From Nitzschia sp. DOCU1 (Eukaryota; Bacillariophyta; Bacillariophyceae; Bacillariales; Bacillariaceae): a stretch of 64,000 nucleotides of DNA. Below are positions 9,974 through 47,082 of the stretch, piece by piece; position 1 is the stretch's first letter; each line of letters begins with the position of its first letter. The notes beneath the pieces were generated by a model. That model did not search any database. It saw only the letters and a list, made by a program, of their open reading frames with translations, and was not told where the DNA came from. The position numbers and the translations under genes were made by a program. The stretch covers positions 3,410,001-3,474,000 of the forward strand of contig OX595985.1 in NCBI GenBank assembly GCA_951394045.1. The letters run 5' to 3'.

Positions 9974-10865
9974 GAGTTTGCACTTCCAAACTCGACTGCT
10001 TCGAATTCTATCTCTTGCTATTTTAACGTGACGGAACCCAAAACCAATGCTGTTCAACAGCAACAACAACTACTCAATGGGAACACTCCGCTGCACCTCT
10101 TCTCATCACACTTCTTCAACTTCAGAAATAATGGAATGGTCATACGTTTGCTTGAGTCTTCAACAATGACAGCAAGCGAAGAATTTGGTATTTTCTTGCC
10201 GGTTTGTTCCCAGGGTCTGCCCACGACAATCAATTGTTTGCAGCACAACCAATACCGGGATTCTTGCAACCTCTTCAACCAAAATGTCGCATATAGTTTC
10301 CCCTGTGGCATCTCCTGCTTTAGTTTGGGCGCTCATGGTTGATTGTTGTGCAATGAGTGTACATGGGGGATGATGACAATGCTGTGCTGCCAACGTTGGA
10401 GCACCTTCACGTGGCCTAACTTTAACATGGCCACTGAACGGTCATCACCCGGCATCAAAGCAGATCAAAAGAAGAGCACTTTGTATCATGCTGGAATAGA
10501 ACATGTTCCTTTCGATGGCTTACCACCGCCAGTAGTTGCTTTAATACAAGCACAGAGTGAAGTGGTGCAAACTCGTCGGGGGCGCAAACTCGTCCGGGGT
10601 GCGCTCAATGTTTTATGGGTTATGAGTCCTGCAAACTCGTCTGGAAGTGCAAACTCGGGAAAAACTTTGAATGAGCCTATCCCTTATTCCCACTTGGAGT
10701 TGGAAACAAAGAGGAGGCTTCGCTTCTCGCCTCGTTGTTGTTCGCGCCATGTTCAGCGATCAGAGCTCAAAGGGCGTCTGTCATCCATCCGGGATGGCAA
10801 ACCACGGACGCTCCTTGAAACCATGTCAGCATCATCAGGCAAGGTTGAGAGAGTGGATCCGCCCA

Positions 10866-11235
10866 GGGACACCAACGAAAATATCGCACGATGCCAATTT
10901 TGGCGATACGTGGCGATGGACAGACCTCCTCGGGGTTAGGCCGAGGAGCAATGGCGCGGGAAGGCGCGCCATCCGAATTTTCGAGTACCACAACGGATAC
11001 AAAAGCAGTTTTGGTTGGTTAAATTCTTTTTATATTGATATACTTTCCTTAGGGTCTTGTAATATTTTTGTATGTGCTTCAATGATTCAAAGGACACGTC
11101 GGTCGTTTAATGAATCATCGCCAGATCACCCCTTACTTATCGAATGACTCGTAAGCGACATTCGAAGACTTATTGTCTCCGTGTTTCCCCGACTGTCTCC
11201 CGAGTGTCGCCGGCTTATCGCCCAGCGACAAAGGA
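10866..11235 (+). repeat. TIR1 left terminal inverted repeat
   Basis: Pairs with 13640-14012. Differences over the outer 300 bp are scattered single bases (for example GTTAGGCCGAGG against GTTACGCCAAGG). The inner 70 bp are only loosely similar. Confidence 0.8.
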
Positions 11236-11580
11236 GTGTCGCCCGAGTGTCGCCAACATCGCCGAGTATCGCCGAGTTTCGCCACGTGTCGCCGGAGAGT
11301 GTGGAAACTCCACGGAGGAAAAGAAAGAAGATTCTCCGGCGACACGTGGCGAAACTCGGCGATACTTAGAGACATAGTGTCGCCGAGTATGGGCGACACT
11401 CGGAGACATTTTGTTCTCTCTCGTCGCCTGGCATCGCAGGGTAACACCCAATGTCGCCGCTTCTTTGGATTCGTTGGGATTCGCCGCGATTCCGTGACAC
11501 TTTTGCGATATTTGGCGACACTTGCGACACTCGGGGACATAGTGTCTCCGAATGTCGCCAAGGTCCCACTCCGGCGAGTC
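11145..11580. repeat. Subterminal GTCGCC/GGCGAC repeat field
   Basis: Many short copies of GTCGCC and GGCGAC spaced about 8-12 bp apart in both orientations (TGTCGCCGAGTATCGCCGAG and the like). Similar motifs occur at the other end (13640-13730). Subterminal motif clusters in DNA transposons often bind transposase. This is not a CRISPR array: there are no equal spacers. Confidence 0.6.
11265..11366. repeat. Perfect 34-bp inverted repeat (hairpin or cruciform)
   Basis: Arms 11265-11298 and 11333-11366 are exact reverse complements. The 34-base loop itself holds a small GTGG/CCAC hairpin. Confidence 0.85.
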
Positions 11581-11630
11581 GAATTCAATTTAAGCGCTCC
11601 GACGTGTCAGATTCCTTTAACTCCAATTAT

Positions 11631-11683
11631 AAGTTTTGACACAATAGTGTCAAAACTTTAAGATTTGACACTATAGTGTCAAA
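11631..11683. promoter_or_regulatory. Two palindromes upstream of the 198-aa gene
   Basis: A 28-bp near-palindrome (11631-11658, mismatch only at the centre) is followed by the perfect 20-bp palindrome TTTGACACTATAGTGTCAAA (11664-11683). The perfect copy lies about 190 bp before the ATG at 11875. The same 20-mer recurs at 13159-13178, upstream of the opposite gene. Confidence 0.7.
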
Positions 11684-11874
11684 ACTTTTTAACCTCTTTA
11701 TTTGACCAGGTTAACTCAGTCCCCACTTACTAAACTTTATACCGTTGAAAAGCTCGTGAAATTCTGATATGGCAAGGTCACAGTGACTCCTGACGGATCT
11801 TCAGCATTTGTCTCCATTTTTCGCCTCAAAGTTGCCTGTCGGCACGATAATTACAAAATCTCGCCACACCCAAC

Positions 11875-12471
11875 ATGTCGGCTCCTTCTTCCCCCCAAGA
11901 ACCTGTGCAACGGTCTCGTTCTGTGTCTCCCTTCACCAAGGAGATAGTTAGGAACCTATTTGACGCATCGCAGATCCCCAACGACGAAATTCGGCGGGCC
12001 GTTACTACAGACGCAACAATGGTCTCGAATTCGGTCGATCCAGCGCAAGACGCCCCACCCGCCGACGACGCACCTCCTTCACCTAGAAACCAAGCGGTAA
12101 ATGGTGACGATGAGAGTCAACGGGAACAATGCCGCCTGTCGGAAGCAAAGAACCGACAGTCGCGATGCGCTGTCTGCCAGACCGACTGTCAGGTTGGCAG
12201 GACACCAAGTGAGGGAAGTCGGAAGAGAGTGTTCTACTGTGAGAAATGCAAACTGCACGTCCATGAACACGTACTCGAGAAGAAAAGGAAGATTCACTTG
12301 CTATTCCCAGCTTCTATGACGTGCCATGACATAGTGAAGACAGTAGATGGGAAAGATATATGGGGTAAGGGTACAAAAAAGACGATGACTAAGTTTGCAA
12401 ACTCAAAGTTACTTGAACTGAGGGAGATGCATAAGAGACAACGAACGGAGTCAAACAAGGATAGTGAATAA
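11875..12471 (+). CDS. Hypothetical 198-aa protein with Cys/His zinc-ribbon-like motif
   Basis: ATG at 11875, TAA at 12469-12471. Residues 1-95 are polar, Pro/Ser/Asp-rich and probably disordered. The middle has CAVCQTDC, then FYCEKCKLHVHEH about 20 residues later, a plausible metal-binding ribbon that loosely recalls the C-terminal finger of PiggyBac-type transposases. The C-terminus is basic (EMHKRQRTES). No DDE catalytic core is present. It converges on the 12536-12991 gene with 64 bp between them. A DNA-binding or accessory role for TIR1 is inference; function is unknown. Confidence 0.55.
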   Translation: MSAPSSPQEPVQRSRSVSPFTKEIVRNLFDASQIPNDEIRRAVTTDATMVSNSVDPAQDAPPADDAPPSPRNQAVNGDDESQREQCRLSEAKNRQSRCAVCQTDCQVGRTPSEGSRKRVFYCEKCKLHVHEHVLEKKRKIHLLFPASMTCHDIVKTVDGKDIWGKGTKKTMTKFANSKLLELREMHKRQRTESNKDSE

Positions 12472-12535
12472 AAAAAAGATACTAGTACCTATTACATGTT
12501 ATAATAATGTAGTAAATGTTATATGTTATAATAAA
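12472..12535. terminator. AT-rich gap between convergent genes
   Basis: 64 bp with two copies of ATGTTATAATAA and A/T runs between two facing stop codons. It could serve as a shared 3'-end region for both genes; no experimental signal is visible. Confidence 0.35.
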
Positions 12536-12991
12536 CTACGCTTCCTTGAATCCAGTGTAGACCTCACCTTGGTGCGCTGGGTAGCAGTCGCGTATCTCGG
12601 TTTCAACGCACTTGGGCAGGGGCTTGCGATTGCCTTTGCCGAGGGTTCCGTGTACAAAGCGGGATGCAACGCTGTAGAGTGCAAAGCGGATGGCCTTGTT
12701 ATCCGACCCGCTCTCCTTCATCTCGTCTCCCATCGTTGCCATGTACTCGCAGAGGGTTGGCCGGTGGTGGTCGGGATCCTCGATGTTGACCTCATAGTCG
12801 AGCATGTCCAGGTCCACCCACTGGTCGAGCACACAGGGATACTCCCCACACAATTCGCAGGGGGGCATGGCAGCACGAAACTGCGCCTCCACGTAGGCTT
12901 CAATCTCCTCAGCAGTTGCGCCGGGCTGTGGGACACAGACGATGCTGATGTCGCGGTCGAAGGTTGACTTGCGCTTTGGCTTCTCGCTCAT
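12536..12991 (-). CDS. Hypothetical 151-aa Cys-rich protein in TIR1
   Basis: ATG at 12989-12991, TAG at 12536-12538. The basic N-terminus (SEKPKRKSTFDRD) is followed by an acidic helix (AEEIEAYVEAQF), the Cys pair motif CELCGEYPC, an acidic stretch, and a C-terminal block RFALYSVASRFVHGTLGKGNR ending in CVETEIRDCYP. It looks like a compact folded domain rather than a random frame. I recall similar short Cys-containing proteins in stramenopile repeats but cannot name a family. The 20-bp palindrome lies about 170 bp upstream of its start. Confidence 0.6.
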   Translation of the reverse strand: MSEKPKRKSTFDRDISIVCVPQPGATAEEIEAYVEAQFRAAMPPCELCGEYPCVLDQWVDLDMLDYEVNIEDPDHHRPTLCEYMATMGDEMKESGSDNKAIRFALYSVASRFVHGTLGKGNRKPLPKCVETEIRDCYPAHQGEVYTGFKEA

Positions 12992-13076
12992 GGTTGTAGA
13001 GTGGATTTTATGTCGTCATTGGCACCAAATTTTGGCATTGGAGGGAGTGCCCGGTTAAGCCGGGTTAAGGCAAAGT

Positions 13077-13121
13077 GTCAAAACTTTCCTTAACCGGAGG
13101 GGCGGTTAAGAAAGTTTTGAC
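13077..13121. repeat. Inverted repeat upstream of the 151-aa gene
   Basis: GTCAAAACTTTCCTTAACCG (13077-13096) pairs with CGGTTAAGAAAGTTTTGAC (13103-13121) with one bulge. The GTCAAAACTTT part also follows the palindromes on the other side (11651-11688). Confidence 0.7.
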
Positions 13122-13158
13122 AAAAAAAATGTCAAAAGTTGGAGCGCGCCGGGCCTCC

Positions 13159-13178
13159 TTTGACACTATAGTGTCAAA
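13159..13178. promoter_or_regulatory. 20-bp perfect palindrome, second copy
   Basis: TTTGACACTATAGTGTCAAA, identical to 11664-11683. The two copies bracket the gene pair at similar distances from each start codon, which fits a shared regulator or the ends of an inner 1.5-kb module. Confidence 0.75.
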
Positions 13179-13290
13179 TCTCTGGCCGCCTTACAATTGA
13201 GTTAATTGGCTCTTTGTGGGAATGAATTGGCGGGAATTGGGAGTTGTGTTGGCGGCAATTGGCAGGGTTTCATCCGTTGTGGATTGTTGT

Positions 13291-13539
13291 TTAGGCGATT
13301 GGGTGTATCACATGGAAGCTACCGGTAGGCGTCCTGTCGATCCTGGATACTCTTCCGTTGGTGGACCAAGAGCAAGTGGGACGCGGCGCCTTGGCGGTGG
13401 CGTTTGGAGTAGCACGTTCTTTGCGCTTTTTCGTGGGGTTGGCAGTGGTGGCATCAATTGCCATGGGGACTGAGGCCCCGAAGTTACGGGTATTGTCCTC
13501 CTTCTTTCTCCTTTTGTTCTTGTTGTTGGTTGTCGACAT
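13291..13539 (-). CDS. Possible small basic protein (82 aa)
   Basis: From the Met at 13539 (MSTTNNKNKRRKKED) the frame is rich in Lys/Arg/Thr and has two nuclear-localisation-like clusters (KNKRRKKED, KKRKERA). The frame extends upstream through the terminal repeat without a stop. It has no known domain and may be chance coding in low-complexity sequence. Confidence 0.25.
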   Translation of the reverse strand: MSTTNNKNKRRKKEDNTRNFGASVPMAIDATTANPTKKRKERATPNATAKAPRPTCSWSTNGRVSRIDRTPTGSFHVIHPIA

Positions 13540-13639
13540 GCTGGTTTTGTGATCCCTTTTCACAACAAAACCTCGAGATTGTGGCGGTTGCTTTTCACGA
13601 ATGAAGCGGACTGACTGATTATAGCCCCTAGTGGAAGGT

Positions 13640-14012
13640 GACACTCGGGCGATAGTCGGTGACACTCGCGACAGTCGGGGATACAAGGCGACGAAATGTC
13701 GCCGAAGGACGCCCAAATGTCGCTTGCGAGTCATTCGATAATTAAGGGGTGATCTGGCTATGATTCGTTGGACGACCGACATGTCCTTTGAATCATTGAA
13801 GCACATACAAAAATATTAAAAGACCCTAAGGAAAGTATATCAATATAAAAAGAAATTAACCAACCAAAACTGCTTTTGTATCCGTTGGGGTACTCGAAAA
13901 TTCGGATGGCGCGCCTTCCCGCGCCATTGCTCCTTGGCGTAACCCCGAGGAGGTCTGTCCATCGCCACGTATCGCCAAAATTGGCATCGTGCGATATTTT
14001 CGTTGGTGTCCC
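13640..14012 (-). repeat. TIR1 right terminal inverted repeat
   Basis: Reverse complement of 10866-11235, with the outer 300 bp best conserved. Confidence 0.8.
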
Positions 14013-14799
14013 AGGAAGATGCCCGAACCGTAATCCTTGCGCGATCGCGCTCAATCTTGTGGGACTGGGCGCTTTTACAAGGAATTTTTTTACGACCGTT
14101 TGAATTGAGTTTTGTTTTCGACACATGGAAGGCCTTGCGCGCGCGCCGTCCAGAAATGATGGAACTGAAGGAACTGCAGTAACTGCAGTTCCTGCCGAGC
14201 CCGTCAAACCATTTAAAGATATGTATTGCGAGCCCGTCAAACCTCTGTCGCATTATTGTTTTGGATCTTTCTTTTGGATCTCTCATTCACTCGGGCCGAT
14301 AGCGCCGGACTCCATTCATTGCAATCAAAGCTCCCAAGCGGCAAAAGAAGACTTCAGATTGTTTCCTGGTCTTGCTGACGAGAATACAACATTCGTGTTG
14401 CCGTGTGGGACTCTGTCCATGTGACGCAACAAATCCCACGTTTCCAGTCCCTCGGAGGAACCAAAAAATGTTCCCAGGAAAGCGACAGAAACTCTGTCGT
14501 TGCGAGGCAAAGAATGAGATTCTGCTTATTGCATATTCGATCATTTCAACAGACGGTTGGGAGGAGAAGAAATTCGGCGTTGTATTCCGAAATTGAAAGC
14601 TTTGACGACTGGAAAGTTCCGCGTTTGGCTCCGTGCTGGGCTTTAAAGACTTCGACGACTCGGCGCTTGGCTCGTCAGACGGCTGTCTAGCAGGCTTGCT
14701 GAATGGCTATTGGCTAGGTGGGAGAGGAGGTGGTCGGAGCAAAAGCCGCACAGGTCGATTTTATGTTGTCTACATGTTAGGTACTACAAGATGTAAATC
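14013..14799. other. No recognisable gene; GGAACTGCAG microrepeat
   Basis: Near 14151-14195 the sequence AATGATGGAACTGAAGGAAC is followed by further GGAACTGCAG units. A longer inverted version occurs at about 23430-23477 ahead of the TPR gene. The rest holds only short unconvincing frames. Confidence 0.5.
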
Positions 14800-35335: not shown

Positions 35336-36619
35336 CTGTGCCGACCGCGTTGAGTACCTGGGCTACGAGATTTCCCGTAATGGTATCCATCCACAACCTA
35401 AGAAAGTGGAAGCGATACTAAAGATGCAGCCGCCGCAAACGAAGCAACAACTAAGACGTTTCTTAGGCATGGTAAATTACTACTGTGATATGTGGCGGAA
35501 GCGATCGCACATACTGGCACCGCTAATTTCCGTTATGTTCCAAGTCAGTCCCGTGGAAATGGACTCCCGAATGCAATGAATCATTCGAATCGATTAAGCA
35601 AGCAGTAGCGCGAGAGACGCTGTTGAACTTCGACTTCAACAAAGAATTCCACATATATACGGATGCTAGCGATTATCAATTGGGCGCCATAATTATGCAA
35701 GATGGAAAGCCATTGGCGTTCTATAGTCGGAAGTTGAACTCCGCACAAAAGAATTATACGACAGGCGAACAAGAACTGCTAAATAGTTGAGACGCTTAAG
35801 GAATTTAGGAATATTCTCCTTGGTCAGAAGCTGGTAGTACACACGGACCACCTGAACATTCTGTACAACAAGATGCCGAGTTCCCGAGTGGTTCGCTGGC
35901 GTCTTCTGTTGGAAGAGTATGGTGCTAAGTTCGTGCATGTCAAAGGCGAAGACAACGTAGTCGCGGACACACTGTCGCAACATCCGAATAGTGACCCAGA
36001 TGACGAGTCGGCAGAGGAGGTTCCCATTGGGAAACAAATGTCATATTGTATGTCGCATCACCCAAGAGATGACGACGACTACGAGATCTCCTATGCCGAC
36101 CTCGTGACCGCGGAGGATATTGCGGCAGAAGAAGGATTCGCACTGAGTCCAAAGGTAGTAGCATACTACCAAAACAAAGACCTCGATCTAATGCGAAAAG
36201 CCAGACGAGCTCCCTCTAAATACACTAAGATCAAACTAGAAGGTGTAGATGTTATAGCTAAGTACGGAAAGGTAGTAGTACCGGCTGCACTACAAGATAG
36301 GATAGTCAAAAGCTACCACGACTTGCTACAACACCCAGGCATGACACGAATGGAAGCGACAATACGCCACGTATTCGATTGGCGAGGATTGCGAGAGAAA
36401 GTCGAGCAACATTGTCGCACGTGCAAGATATGTCAGTTGACGAAGAAGCAACGGAAAGAATATGGCCATCTGCCACCAAAAGAGGCGGAGACAATACCAT
36501 TGAAGCGCGTGAACGTAGACATGGTAGGACCATACACCGTGCGAACTCCGAAAGGAGTACGCGAGCTCTTAGCGATGACCATGATCAACCCAGTCACGGG
36601 TTGGTTCGAAATAGCACCA
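35336..36619 (+). pseudogene. pol: GyC-2 pol (RT thumb, RNase H, integrase start), plus strand
   Basis: Begins abruptly in RT (DRVEYLGYEI), joined head-to-head to the GyC-1 leader through a shared TGCC. RNase H has YTDAS. A 2-bp deletion near 35781 (CTGCTAAATAGTTGAG) shifts the frame. A good frame then runs from 35873 through the integrase zinc domain to GWFEIAP, where GyC-3 is inserted at CACCA (36615-36619). The gene resumes at 39773-39800 and 46209-46837. Confidence 0.85.
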
Positions 36620-39000
<2,381 letters not shown>

Positions 39001-39540
39001 GAACATAACGGAAATTAGCGGTGCCAGTATGTGCGATCGCTTCCGCCACATATCACAGTAGTAATTTACCATGCCTAAGAAACGTCTTAGTTGTTGCTTC
39101 GTTTGCGGCGGCTGCATCTTTAGTTCAGCTAGTAGCTCGTCCCGCTGCTCCTTAGTTAAGTAGTCGAGTGAGTCCACAAACTCTTCCAATTCGACCTTGG
39201 AGTAGTCGGCGTCGAGGATCTTAGCTTGTCGTTCTTCTGCCGCTTTGATAACGGGGGCGTCTTGAGACATCTCGTACAGAAGCTGTAGAGCCTCTGGATC
39301 CGTCACCACACCACTTTCCTTCATCTCGACTTCGCTATTGCCCCACCGAATCGTTCGTTTCTCAAAATCGAGTACAAACTTCAATTCGGCTAATAGGTCA
39401 AGTCCTAGAATCAGGTCGTAGGGTGAGCTTTCGCGATCTGTGTGCTCGTCGACGTGACATGGCCAGTGTATTTCTTTACTAGACGAGAGTTCGGGGATCC
39501 TGAAGCGAATCATTCCGACCTTGTCCATCTTGAATTTGCG
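39001..39540 (-). pseudogene. pol: GyC-3 protease/RT linker with internal deletion
   Basis: Reads [16 protein letters not shown]...[15 protein letters not shown] (protease C-terminus) to LLAELK. It then jumps straight to [20 protein letters not shown] (RT thumb), so the RT palm is deleted near 39125. Confidence 0.85.
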
Positions 39541-39767
39541 AACAAACGGTGACGTCGTCACTGACGGCGCACTGACGCAGCGATCAAAGGAGTCGCAGCG
39601 TTGGTGCGCCATCAGCGACGACGTCACCGTTCGTTCGTGTCCGTGTCAGTTAGCCGTCTGTACGTCGTCCGTCCGGCAGACGACTCCCTTCGTCTACGAC
39701 TACTAAGACTACCAGCATGTAGGAATAAGATGACTAAACTATTTATGCGTCTCTGTGGGGTATGGCA
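39539..39767. repeat. Palindromic GyC LTR fusion
   Basis: 39539-39600 is a GyC LTR segment in sense-plus orientation. At CGCAGCGTT|GGTGCGCC it turns into the same segment in minus orientation, continuing to the LTR edge at 39767. The fold spans about 60 bp per arm. Confidence 0.8.
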
Positions 39768-39800
39768 CACCACTGCCTTCACCTGATAGTTACGAGTGCC
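39768..39800 (+). pseudogene. 33-bp island of GyC-2 integrase
   Basis: CACCACTGCCTTCACC followed by TGATAGTTACGAGTGCC, coding [10 protein letters not shown] in frame with GyC-2 integrase on both sides. It starts with the CACCA duplication of GyC-3 and ends with the GTGCC duplication of GyC-4. Confidence 0.85.
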
Positions 39801-40418
39801 TGCCCTATCCCGGGGGTGACAAAATAAAAGTAGAAGACTATTGTAATTGTGAGACCTATGTTACATCTATTTGCATTCATTCCAACAACAAGATTGACAA
39901 GACGAAAGATTTTCGTCTTTCAAATATTTGCGACCGATCGTTCATTTTGTGAACGTCTTTCCCCGCGCGTAAATAACGCGCATATATTCTATTCATTCGG
40001 ATATGTCGATTCCTCGTATCGTCGCCTTGCAACTAGGCGTCCCTAGTCTTGGCTAGCTACGACTCCTCGTCGCCCATGGTCTGAATTATTTCCTTGCTCT
40101 AATTACATCTCCTCTATTAGGCGATGGATATTTACTACTTAGATTGTAGGCATGCCGTTGGCAAGGGACTCTATGGGCTAGTCGAATGTTACTATGCATT
40201 ATGCTACAGAGCGCTTCCATGTGTAACGCTGCGACTCCTTTGATCGCTGCGTTGGTGCGCCATCAGCGACGACGTCACCGTTCGTTCGTGTCCGTGTCAG
40301 TTAGCCGTCTGTACGTCGTCCGTCCGGCAGACGACTCCCTTCGTCTACGACTACTAAGACTACCAGCATGTAGGAATAAGATGACTAAACTATTTATGCG
40401 TCTCTGTGGGGTATGGCA
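39801..40418 (-). repeat. Extra GyC LTR in a tandem LTR array
   Basis: Complete 618-bp LTR, followed by a second copy of the 33-bp integrase island (40419-40451) and then the GyC-4 LTR. Unequal exchange between neighbouring LTRs explains the LTR-33-LTR-33-LTR order. Confidence 0.85.
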
Positions 40419-40451
40419 CACCACTGCCTTCACCTGATAGTTACGAGTGCC

Positions 40452-42501
<2,050 letters not shown>

Positions 42502-42583
42502 CTTGTTGTACAGAATGTTCAGGTGGTCCGTGTGTACTACCAGCTTCTGACCAAGGAGAATATTCCTAAATTCCTTAAGCGTC

Positions 42584-44932
42584 TCAACTACTTAGCAGTT
42601 CTTGTTCGCCTGTTGTATAATTCTTTTGGGCGGAGTTCAACTTCCGACTATAGAACGCCAATGGCTTTCCATCTTGCATAATTACGGCGCCCAATTGATA
42701 ATCGCTAGCATCCGTATATATGTGGAATTCTTTGTTGAAGTCGGGGAAGTTCAACAGCGTCTCTCGCGCTACTGCTTGCTTGATCGATTCGAATGATTCA
42801 TTGCAATCGGGAGTCCATTTCCACGGGACTGACTTGGAACATAACGCCGTTAGCGGCGCCAGTATGTGCGATCGCTTCTGCCACATATCACGGTAGTAAT
42901 TTACCATGCCTAAGAAACGTCTCAGTTGTCGCTTCGTTTGCGGCAGCTGCATCTTTAGTATCGCTTCCACTTTCTTAGGTTGGGGATTGATACCGTTACG
43001 GGAAATCTCGTAGCCTAGGTACTCAACGCGGTCGGCAGCAAATTTGCATTTGCGTACATTAGCGCGGAACCCAGCTTGTTCGAGTCGTGCGAGAACCTCT
43101 TTGAGCTTTGTGACATGGTCACTAAATGTGCCTTTGCTCGTTATCAAAATATCATCCATATATACCTGTACGTACTCCAGGTCACCAAGGAGACGCATCA
43201 TGATACTTTGGAAAATATCAGGGGCATTGGATATACCCATCGGCAGCACCTGGTACTGATATAAGCCCCACGGCATTACAGTACCAAGGAGGCCTTGGCT
43301 GTACTTATCCATTGGAATGTGATAATAGCCCATGCTGAGGTCAATAGCCGTTGCCCATTTAAAGCCCTGGAGTTTTTGCAATAACTCGTTGATCTTTGGC
43401 AGTGGGTGTGGCTTGCGCACAAGATATTCGTTGAGTTTCCGAAAATCTGTAAGTACGCGCACATCGCCCATTTTCTTCGGTTGAATGAACGTGCCGGCCG
43501 TCCATGTGGATTGGTTGACACGCTTCCAGATTCCAAGTTTTTCGAATTGTTCGATCTCTTTTCGCGTCGTTTGCTCGTACGCATGAGGAATGCCGAATGG
43601 CTTAGCATGATACGGCTTTGCTCCTTCTTTTAACTCTAGACAAATAGGATCTATTTTAAGTTTACCTAATCCGCCTCCGAATAGTGTAGGGTGCTGCTTC
43701 AGTTCAGCTAGTAGCTCGTCTCGTTGCTCCTTAGTTAAGTAGTCGAGTGAGTCCACAAACTCTTCCATTTCGACCTTGGAGTAGTCGGCGTCGAGGATCT
43801 TAGCTTGTCGTTCTTCCGCCGCTTGAATAACGGGGGCATCTTGAGACATCTCGTACAGAAGCTGTAAAGCCTCTGGATCCGTCACAACACCACTTTCCTT
43901 CATCTCGGCTTCGCTATCACCCCATCGAATCGTTCGTTTCTCGAAATCGAGTACAAACTTCAATTCGGCTAATAGGTCAAGTCCTAGAATCAGGTCGTAG
44001 GGTGAGCTTTCGCGATCTGTGTGCTCGTTGACCTGACATGGCCAGTGTATCTCTTTACTAGACGAGAGTTCGGGGATCCTGAAGCGAATCATTCCGACTT
44101 TGTCCATCTTGAATTTGCCGCCCATTGTAGTCCAAGTAGTAACTCGTTTTCCAGTGGGAACAAGCTGGCTAAGCGTCACAAAGTTCTTAAGAACGATGGA
44201 ACGACTAGTACCCGTATCTAGTAGAGTTCTAAGGACATAGGATTCACCTCTAGGATTTACCGCTTCGACGACTATTTCTGTAGTTAGCCGCCCGGCCATT
44301 TTCCTATTCGGCTCTATTCCAGGGCGCAACGTTCGAATGGCAAAACTATGCTCATTTTCGCTATTGTAGGCGATGTAGTCGCTCTCGGATTCACTACTCT
44401 CGTTACTGCTACTGTCCGAATGATTATTCAGCTGGAAACTGACCTGCCTTTTGGCTTTGGTCTTCCCTTTCTCTTTTTTACTTTTTTTCTTAGCGAGGGC
44501 TTTCACGACAGTCTCCATCTGGAGTGCCGAGAACATGTTCTCACGGGCTCCGCGCGGACGCTTGTTTGGGCGATCCTTGGCATTGCCAGGAAGGCTCCAA
44601 CACTTGTAGTCGGGGGCCGGATGGAACTTGCCGCAGTGCTCGCAGGGTTTCTTCCTGTCCCCCTTTTCGGCTTTCTTGCGGTCTTTGCCTCTCTTTCTTT
44701 TCTTACCGCCGTCTTTGCTTTCGCTTTCGGATCGGTCGGCGTTTTTCTTTTCTTTGTTCTTTTTGTCTGCTCGGACCGCATCGTCGAAGACGTGCTTGGC
44801 CTCGAGCTTTTCCAAGTATTTGTAGTACTCGTCGAGCGTCATCGAGAAGGGATCGATGTTCGAGGTGAGCAGGTCTTGCTGCCACTCGATCCTTTTTTGC
44901 TCGGTCGAGGATCTCCACGAGCTCATCGTCAT
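42584..44932 (-). pseudogene. pol: GyC-4 gag C-terminus, protease, RT, RNase H start
   Basis: One open 782-codon stretch: Gag zinc knuckle CEHCGKFHPAPDYKC (CX2CX3HX6C), protease LLDTGTSRS, RT with VYMDDILI, and RNase H YTDAS up to GEQELLS-stop. So this family fuses Gag and Pol in one frame. The frame should continue into 42501; a missing TA near 42590 causes the stop. Confidence 0.9.
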
Positions 44933-45560
44933 CGAACATCTCGCAGCTCGTTTTGTCTTCGGGGATTGGGAAGTAAGGTAGCATGTTGTTTTGACGGAGT
45001 AGTTCGGCCTTGAAGTCGGCCAACGACATCTCCATCATGAACACGTGATAGCGTAGATAGTTTCGCTGGCGGCGGTAGGCGTGTTCGGTGCCAAAGTAGT
45101 ACTGCCCCATTCGTTGCATCGCCTCGTTAAAGGTGTCGTCCGGGGTCTCTTCTTCTTCTTCGTCCAACTCGTCAATGTTGTGACGTAGGTTGGCAACGAT
45201 GTCTGCGAACCTTTGCCTTGCCTCTCCAGCCAACAACGCCTTCGCATACTTGATTTTCTTCTCCCCATCGTCCAAGGGGACGTCCCGAATCAACTTGTCC
45301 ATCTGCATCCGCCACTTGACCCATCGCTCGGCGTCGCCTTGTTCGAAGATGAAGCAACGCGTTTCGAACTCGTCCGAATCCTCATCGGTTGGGTCTAACT
45401 TGATCTTGACCTTCTTGGACTTCTCATCGTCTTGGAGAATCTCTTCGTCCTTGGGTTTCTCGCGACGGAAGGGGATCAACGGAGGGTTGACGTGAGCGGC
45501 TTGAGTCAGAAGCAACGCAACTTTCTTCGCGTACTCGTGGTTAGAGTAGGAGGTCTTCAT
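44703..45560 (-). pseudogene. gag: GyC-4 gag, N-terminal part
   Basis: Begins MKTSYSNHEYAKK at 45560. The capsid-like region runs to EILDRAKK; an extra A in an A-run near 44900 shifts it out of the main frame, and the last 60 or so residues to 44703 are out of frame. Confidence 0.85.
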
Positions 45561-45572
45561 CCTTCAAATGGG

Positions 45573-45584
45573 AGTTTTAAAACT
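45573..45584. promoter_or_regulatory. 12-bp palindrome at the expected primer-binding site of GyC
   Basis: AGTTTTAAAACT, one base inside the 5' LTR and followed by CC in element sense. The same sequence is kept in GyC-1 (35324-35335 region) and GyC-5 (63029-63040 region). Confidence 0.6.
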
Positions 45585-45585
45585 G

Positions 45586-47082
<1,497 letters not shown>

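What the first reader, a model, noticed from the sequence alone, without database searches (positions are those of the whole stretch)
10866..14012. TIR1: long-TIR element with two convergent small genes and no transposase
Inverted repeats of about 370 bp enclose two compact unknown genes (198 and 151 aa), palindromes, a hairpin and subterminal motif fields. It resembles a mobile unit that carries its own DNA-binding or accessory proteins and relies on a transposase elsewhere. I cannot match it to a named superfamily.
Basis: partly seen in the sequence, partly recalled or inferred. Interest (0 to 1): 0.75.

Follow-up and report, generated by a model that had tools for sequence, protein, structure and literature searches.

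The report
piggyBac copy inside a Harbinger copy
What looked like one unknown mobile element is two known kinds of jumping gene, one sitting inside the other; the inner one carries a small extra gene that seems related to part of an animal cell-surface receptor.

Summary
The inverted repeats and both small genes are real, but TIR1 is not one element. It is a nest. The outer unit (10867-14011) is a defective Harbinger-type (PHIS) transposon: CWG target duplication, TIRs of about 370 bp, and longer relatives holding DDE_Tnp_4. Into it jumped a piggyBac-type transposon (11621-13201, TTAA on both sides). Two outer copies elsewhere lack the insert and read through a single TTAA. The 198-aa protein is the N-terminus of a ~950-985 aa piggyBac transposase joined in frame to its C-terminal cysteine-rich domain, the catalytic core being deleted. 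The 151-aa convergent gene is intact and is a usual part of this piggyBac lineage: 49 of 52 places matching the transposase C-terminus have it nearby. By sequence profile, and more weakly by predicted fold, it resembles the P2X7 'ballast' domain, that is, the KolX accessory protein of Kolobok transposons. A 2022 paper already mentions KolX-like proteins in a few piggyBac families, so the pairing is not new. The interesting residue is the accessory gene itself: open in most places found, and apparently swapped between diverged piggyBac subfamilies. Its function is untested.

The parts
10864..10866 (.). CAG, left copy of the 3-bp target duplication of the outer element (in CCAGG)
10867..11235 (+). 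left TIR arm of the outer Harbinger-type element (GGACACCAACGAAAAT...), with GTCGCC-type repeats towards its inner side
11265..11366 (.). 34-nt perfect hairpin (arms 11265-11298 / 11333-11366) in the outer element; the region lies within stretches matched in the two empty outer copies
11617..11620 (.). TTAA, left copy of the piggyBac target duplication
11621..13201 (+). inner piggyBac-type element, internally deleted (ends CTCCAATTATAAG / CTCAATTGTAAG)
11637..11652 (.). subterminal palindrome TGACACAATAGTGTCA (one mismatch)
11666..11681 (.). subterminal palindrome TGACACTATAGTGTCA; 13 exact places found in the 52-Mb genome, 13 of 13 inside copies of this piggyBac subfamily
11875..12471 (+). 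[quoted passage not shown] join near 12098-12102; catalytic core missing
12536..12991 (-). 151-aa accessory gene, P2RX7_C / KolX-like domain, open reading frame intact
13161..13176 (.). right-end palindrome TGACACTATAGTGTCA
13202..13205 (.). TTAA, right copy of the piggyBac target duplication
13382..13553 (-). remnant of the start of the outer family's second ORF (277-aa open frame, 263 aa from its first Met, in longer copies)
13643..14011 (-). right TIR arm of the outer element
14012..14014 (.). CAG, right copy of the outer target duplication

Best explanation
A non-autonomous Harbinger-type (PHIS, CWG target) element inserted first. A piggyBac-type transposon of a different family then inserted into it at a TTAA. 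SHOWN by sequence: both pairs of target duplications, two empty outer copies, full-length piggyBac relatives with a transposase, longer outer relatives with DDE_Tnp_4. The piggyBac copy lost its catalytic core by an internal deletion with about 2 bp of microhomology, leaving one reading frame that joins the N-terminus to the CRD. INFERRED: each layer can move only if a transposase is supplied by a relative (outer: Harbinger-type; inner: piggyBac-type). If made, the 198-aa protein could at most bind the subterminal palindromes and compete with full transposase. The intact 151-aa KolX-like protein is a conserved second gene of this piggyBac lineage that most likely assists or regulates the transposase.
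For: Window 10862-11620 and 13202-14012 are contiguous, sharing one TTAA, in two outer copies (C10:2313633-2315265, C4:479840-481444). Of 17 piggyBac ends held and printed, 15 read TTAACTC and 14 of these TTAACTCCAAT. The 198-aa protein matches N-terminal (1 to about 72) and C-terminal (about 73-198) parts of open frames of up to 985 aa; one such transposase gives DDE_Tnp_1_7 E 5.4e-39 and matches solved piggyBat transposase at E 7e-10 and piggyBac at 4e-4. 20 of 20 outer ends in the 10 pairs examined sit at CWG and 8 of 10 pairs match. DDE_Tnp_4 lies inside longer outer copies. 52 of 63 accessory places lie near piggyBac CRD/DDE, 51 of those 52 convergent; 49 of 52 CRD places have an accessory. 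dN/dS of the accessory gene against the 8 closer relatives is 0.14-0.40; most of the 9 distant ones were saturated.
Against: Two of 10 outer end pairs do not match in TSD: C10:2313634/2315265, which is also one of the two empty-site copies, and C9:57385/60861, with inverted-repeat flanks. The DDE_Tnp_4 matches in the outer family are modest (about 31 bits against a cut-off of 24.8), and only 4 of the genome's 33 DDE_Tnp_4 matches lie in or near outer copies. One other pair of outer ends, 21 kb apart (C1:5315798 and C1:5336648), also encloses piggyBac and accessory matches; I did not examine it, and think it is another nest. No expression data. The joined 198-aa frame was seen in one place only.
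Confidence: 0.95

Rival explanations
1. One composite element: the long TIRs and both genes form a single mobile unit of a new kind, with its own DNA-binding protein.
For: The long TIRs flank the genes and are 96% alike over 300 bp. A second pair of outer ends (C1:5315798/5336648) also encloses piggyBac matches, not examined.
Against: The relatives of the genes whose ends I could read are bounded by TTAA and CTCC ends, not by these TIRs. Two relatives of the TIR element lack the genes and show an uninterrupted TTAA.
Confidence: 0.03
2. The 198-aa CRD-only protein is a working repressor or competitor of full-length piggyBac transposase, kept by selection (as with truncated P-element repressors, recalled).
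For: The frame is kept across the deletion, the left end and palindromes are intact, and the CRD is the likely palindrome-binding part (piggyBac and piggyBat CRDs bind palindromes: PMC7351741, PMC11707139, passages read). dN/dS of its CRD against the three nearest relatives is 0.24-0.44, which may reflect time before the deletion.
Against: Single copy of this joined form; one in three deletions keeps frame by chance; a search of 5.8 billion proteins, limited to similar length, gave one hit, an N-terminal fragment, so no stand-alone CRD relative.
Confidence: 0.15
3. The 151-aa protein is a host gene hitch-hiking in the element.
For: Ballast domains also exist in animal P2X7 receptors (PMC7016195, passages read), and other outer-family copies do hold host-like frames.
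Against: 52 of 63 places in the genome lie near piggyBac transposase parts, 51 of the 52 convergent.
Confidence: 0.03

Closest known systems
piggyBac superfamily (piggyBat-type transposase)
   Same: TTAA target duplication, DDE_Tnp_1_7 in full relatives, C-terminal cysteine-rich domain with weak Pfam C1 similarity (the piggyBat CRD has C1-like topology, PMC11707139), palindromes near the ends.
   Different: This copy lacks the catalytic core; the lineage carries a second, convergent gene.
PHIS superfamily, NuwaI group (CWG target; PMC4482050)
   Same: CWG target duplications, TIR starting GG(G), DDE_Tnp_4-type transposase in longer copies.
   Different: TIRs of about 370 bp (NuwaI: 12-61 bp); the second ORF gives no Pfam Myb/SANT match; NuwaI was reported only from animals. 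No tree was made here.
KolX accessory protein of Kolobok transposons / P2X7 ballast domain (PMC9587614, PMC7016195)
   Same: Sequence profile over the C-terminal third and, moderately, predicted fold; carried by a TTAA transposon. [quoted passage not shown]
   Different: Four invariant cysteines (C45, C48, C53, C128) instead of seven, and it sits in piggyBac, not Kolobok.

Membership tests
piggyBac superfamily (inner element) | TTAA target duplication with precise empty site | tested here: met
piggyBac superfamily (inner element) | DDE_Tnp_1_7 transposase | tested here: met
   Met in full-length relatives; not found in the window copy itself, which is therefore non-autonomous
piggyBac superfamily (inner element) | C-terminal zinc CRD that binds end palindromes | tested here: inconclusive
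   Cys/His-rich C-terminus, C1_1 E 0.0068, 16.6 bits, below the 26.5 cut-off; exact palindromes found only in these elements; binding not testable; single-sequence model too weak (mean pLDDT 47.5)
PHIS / Harbinger, NuwaI-like (outer element) | CWG 3-bp target duplication | tested here: met
   20 of 20 ends in 10 pairs at CWG, 8 of 10 pairs match
PHIS / Harbinger, NuwaI-like (outer element) | DDE_Tnp_4 transposase inside longer copies | tested here: met
   C1:5474969, C8:1220231 and C9:59048 lie between paired ends (the C9 pair has mismatched TSD); C15:146120 is near a single found end; 30.7 bits over the 24.8 cut-off for C9
PHIS / Harbinger, NuwaI-like (outer element) | second ORF with Myb/SANT domain | tested here: inconclusive
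   a 263-aa second ORF exists but has no Pfam match at E <= 0.1
PHIS / Harbinger, NuwaI-like (outer element) | TIR of 12-61 bp (as reported for NuwaI) | tested here: not met
   about 370 bp; so filed only at superfamily level
KolX / P2X7 ballast domain (151-aa protein) | profile match to P2RX7_C | tested here: met
   17 genomic relatives over the cut-off, of 49 candidates scored, over model positions 127-192 only; the window copy itself 17.6 bits against 23.5
KolX / P2X7 ballast domain (151-aa protein) | ballast fold | tested here: inconclusive
KolX / P2X7 ballast domain (151-aa protein) | seven zinc-binding cysteines | tested here: not met
   four invariant cysteines in 12 of 12 aligned genomic relatives
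KolX proper | encoded by a Kolobok (Kol0) transposon | tested here: not met
   encoded by piggyBac; hence 'KolX-like'

The most novel reading that the evidence does not exclude
The ballast/KolX-like protein is a working partner of TTAA-specific transposases in general (Kolobok and piggyBac), and in this genome it travels as an exchangeable cassette between piggyBac subfamilies. Copies C8 and C15 have synonymous divergence of about 0.06 in the accessory gene against about 2.5 in the adjacent CRD. A defective piggyBac such as this one would then persist as a provider of accessory protein and of a core-less DNA-binding fragment.
Probability: 0.3. Interest if true: 0.65.

Novelty: new member of a known kind. 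Interest (0 to 1): 0.38.

Why it matters
It clears up an apparent new element class as nested insertions. It also gives a genome with 51 convergent pairings of piggyBac transposase parts and a KolX-like gene, a set on which the role of this accessory protein could be tested in a transposition assay with and without the gene. The authors of PMC9587614 hold that a KolX protein gave rise to the P2X7 ballast domain.

Tried and rejected
A single new element with captured genes: rejected by the empty sites. A 5-bp CCWGG duplication for the outer element: rejected, since the outer bases differ between the two ends in several pairs, so 3-bp CWG. A viral or prokaryotic source of the accessory gene: no relative confirmed in viral contigs (3 pattern matches) or in bacterial/archaeal genomes (16 pattern matches), by degenerate-pattern scans that find only fairly close relatives. 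Fold searches gave nothing at E <= 0.001, neither in BFVD nor in the PDB. A search for stand-alone CRD proteins gave one N-terminal fragment. Single-sequence model of the 198-aa protein: too poor to search with. No tRNA in the window. Paper searches for piggyBac with accessory protein and second ORF, for truncated piggyBac repressors and for Harbinger with CWG and piggyBac returned none; KolX appears in one held paper.

Full report
OBSERVATION. The arms 10863-11162 and 13716-14015 are 96% complementary. Aligned over 370 bp, 328 of 381 columns agree. The ORFs of 198 aa (11875-12471, +) and 151 aa (12536-12991, -) are as described, as are a 34-nt perfect hairpin (11265-11298/11333-11366) and palindromes. 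The window is G000:C1:3410001-3474000 of a 52-Mb genome in 63 contigs. Many long ORFs of the window look like retrotransposon polyproteins (my reading, not scanned). I think from recall that the organism is a diatom, which no call establishes.

TWO SETS OF ENDS. Searching the TIR in the whole genome gave 42 matches; searching the 198-aa protein gave 66. Comparing the tables, the two sets meet at the window copy and at one more place: TIR matches at C1:5315798 and C1:5336648, 21 kb apart, enclose piggyBac and accessory matches. I did not examine that place. Aligning the window to the fetched loci shows the structure. Window 11617-13205 matches one set of loci and the rest matches another. In two outer copies, C10:2313633-2315265 and C4:479840-481444, the stretches left of 11620 and right of 13202 are contiguous and share one TTAA. 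They read ...GATTCCTTTAATTGGCTC... where the window has ...GATTCCTTTAACTCCAATT [1.6 kb] CAATTGAGTTAATTGGCTC.... The inner piece is flanked by TTAA and starts CTCCAATTATAAG. Of 18 piggyBac ends asked for, one (C14 left) was not held. Of the other 17, 15 read TTAACTC and 14 TTAACTCCAAT; the two exceptions are the left ends of the two C16 copies. The window's right tip is one C shorter than in the relatives.

OUTER ELEMENT. Of 30 ends printed, 28 read CWG|GGACACC; the other two belong to one scrambled copy (C1:4815972-4816259). For the 10 end pairs that I could pair, 20 of 20 ends sit at CWG and in 8 of 10 pairs the two CWG agree as a duplication. The C10 pair and the C9 pair do not, and the C9 pair has inverted flanks. 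DDE_Tnp_4 gave 33 matches in the genome. Four concern this family: C1:5474969, C8:1220231 and C9:59048 between paired ends, C15:146120 near one single end. The C9 frame scores 30.7 bits against a 24.8 cut-off. Longer copies carry a second ORF of 277 aa (263 aa from its first Met) without a Pfam match; the window keeps a remnant of its start. CWG duplications and GGG-starting TIRs are marks of NuwaI in the PHIS superfamily (PMC4482050, abstract and passages read). NuwaI TIRs are 12-61 bp and the group was reported from animals, so I file the outer element under PHIS/Harbinger, not under NuwaI.

INNER ELEMENT. The 198-aa protein matches N-termini (residues 1 to about 72) and C-termini (73-198) of open frames of up to 985 aa. 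One such transposase (C15) gives DDE_Tnp_1_7 at 5.4e-39 and matches solved piggyBat transposase at 7e-10 and piggyBac at 4.3e-4. The join in the window reads AAGCGGTAA/ATGGTG, with about 2 bp shared between the two parents. The C-terminal part gives a weak, below-cut-off Pfam C1 match. This fits the report that the piggyBat CRD has C1-like topology and binds an imperfect palindrome (PMC11707139, passages read); the piggyBac CRD also binds a palindrome (PMC7351741, passages read). The exact palindrome TGACACTATAGTGTCA was found at 13 places in the genome (0 for the reversed control), 13 of 13 inside copies of this subfamily. The single-sequence model of the 198-aa protein is too weak to use (mean pLDDT 47.5).

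ACCESSORY GENE. The 151-aa gene gave 65 matches in the genome. After joining split matches that is 63 places: 52 lie near a piggyBac CRD or DDE match, 51 of these convergent with it, and 11 do not. Of 52 CRD places (66 rows less 14 rows that match only the N-terminus), 49 have it. Of 57 DDE_Tnp_1_7 places (61 rows joined), 38 have it and 19 do not, among them the five strongest, whose frames are shorter (713-758 aa). Sixty of the 65 matched stretches have no stop inside; some are only partial. dN/dS against the 8 closer relatives is 0.14-0.40; against 9 distant ones synonymous sites were mostly saturated. Invariant in 12 aligned relatives are, among others, C45, C48, C53, C128 and much of LGKG.RK.LP.CV..EI.D..P...G..YTGF.

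EXCHANGE OF THE ACCESSORY GENE. Along the element, C8 and C15 are 70-78% identical through the CRD, 95-99% in the accessory gene, and 72-86% beyond. Synonymous divergence for that pair is 0.06 in the accessory gene against 2.46 in the CRD; for window and C15, 0.24 against 2.55; for window and C8 the sign is reversed, 0.20 against 0.06. Of the 15 pairs of six copies, the 11 with a diverged CRD have the lower value in the accessory gene and the 4 with a close CRD have the higher value there, so the two genes do not share one history. Fisher tests on rounded counts for 6 of the 15 pairs gave 1e-21 (C8-C15), 2e-12, 7e-11, 1e-7, 0.01 and 0.06 (synonymous sites approximated as 22% of bases). The transposase N-terminus is also less diverged than its middle (C12-C15: 0.59 against 0.8-1.9 and saturation). 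Gene conversion or recombination between copies would explain this; I did not test breakpoints formally.

CONCLUSION. A nest of two defective transposons of named superfamilies. Mechanism: cut-and-paste in trans for both, shown only by their footprints. The role of the accessory protein and of the core-less transposase fragment is inferred and untested.

Noticed in passing
12536-12991 and relatives (G000 C8:1440395, C15:1361918, C12:1499092, C7:1422553, C1:5191298): The accessory gene behaves as an exchange island between piggyBac subfamilies: nearly identical in C8 and C15, whose transposase C-termini are near saturation at synonymous sites. Two versions of its middle segment cut across the lineages.
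   Followed up: partly
G000 C1:5461812-5464605 and C12:70646-73637: Two copies with the outer family's ends and matching CWG duplications enclose host-like frames: a 441-aa MFS transporter frame (Pfam 58.2 bits) and a 321-aa cupin/JmjC-type frame (64.9 bits). The outer family may pick up host gene pieces, as Pack-type elements do (recalled).
   Followed up: partly
G000 C1:5315798-5336917: A second pair of outer-family ends, 21 kb apart, encloses piggyBac transposase, CRD and accessory matches: perhaps another nest.
   Followed up: no
G000 C3:2882535, C7:2036114, C4:1971700, C8:926258 (L091), C1:2687076, C5:2805047, C1:2744265: Seven distant relatives (33-34% identity) of the accessory protein, in 315-316-aa open frames, not near any piggyBac match; in L091 the ORF is convergent with a 144-aa ORF of unknown kind. 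Possibly another transposon class with a KolX-like gene.
   Followed up: partly
C15, C7 and C4 piggyBac copies: Their end palindromes read TGTGACAC..GTGTCAC instead of TTTGACAC..GTGTCAAA. These copies also have a CRD only 66-72% identical to the window's: possible co-change of binding domain and site.
   Followed up: no
10000-10679: The DNA just left of the outer element is itself a repeat, 96% identical to C1:4814824-4815499, next to another scrambled outer copy.
   Followed up: no
35339-47082: Long inverted repeats (arms up to 996 nt, 98% complementary) in what looks like Gypsy-type retrotransposon sequence (my reading of the ORFs).
   Followed up: no
G000 C9:57385-60861: A pair of outer ends whose 25-bp flanks are identical in inverted orientation, so the ends seem to lie in a larger inverted repeat and not in a simple insertion.
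   Followed up: no
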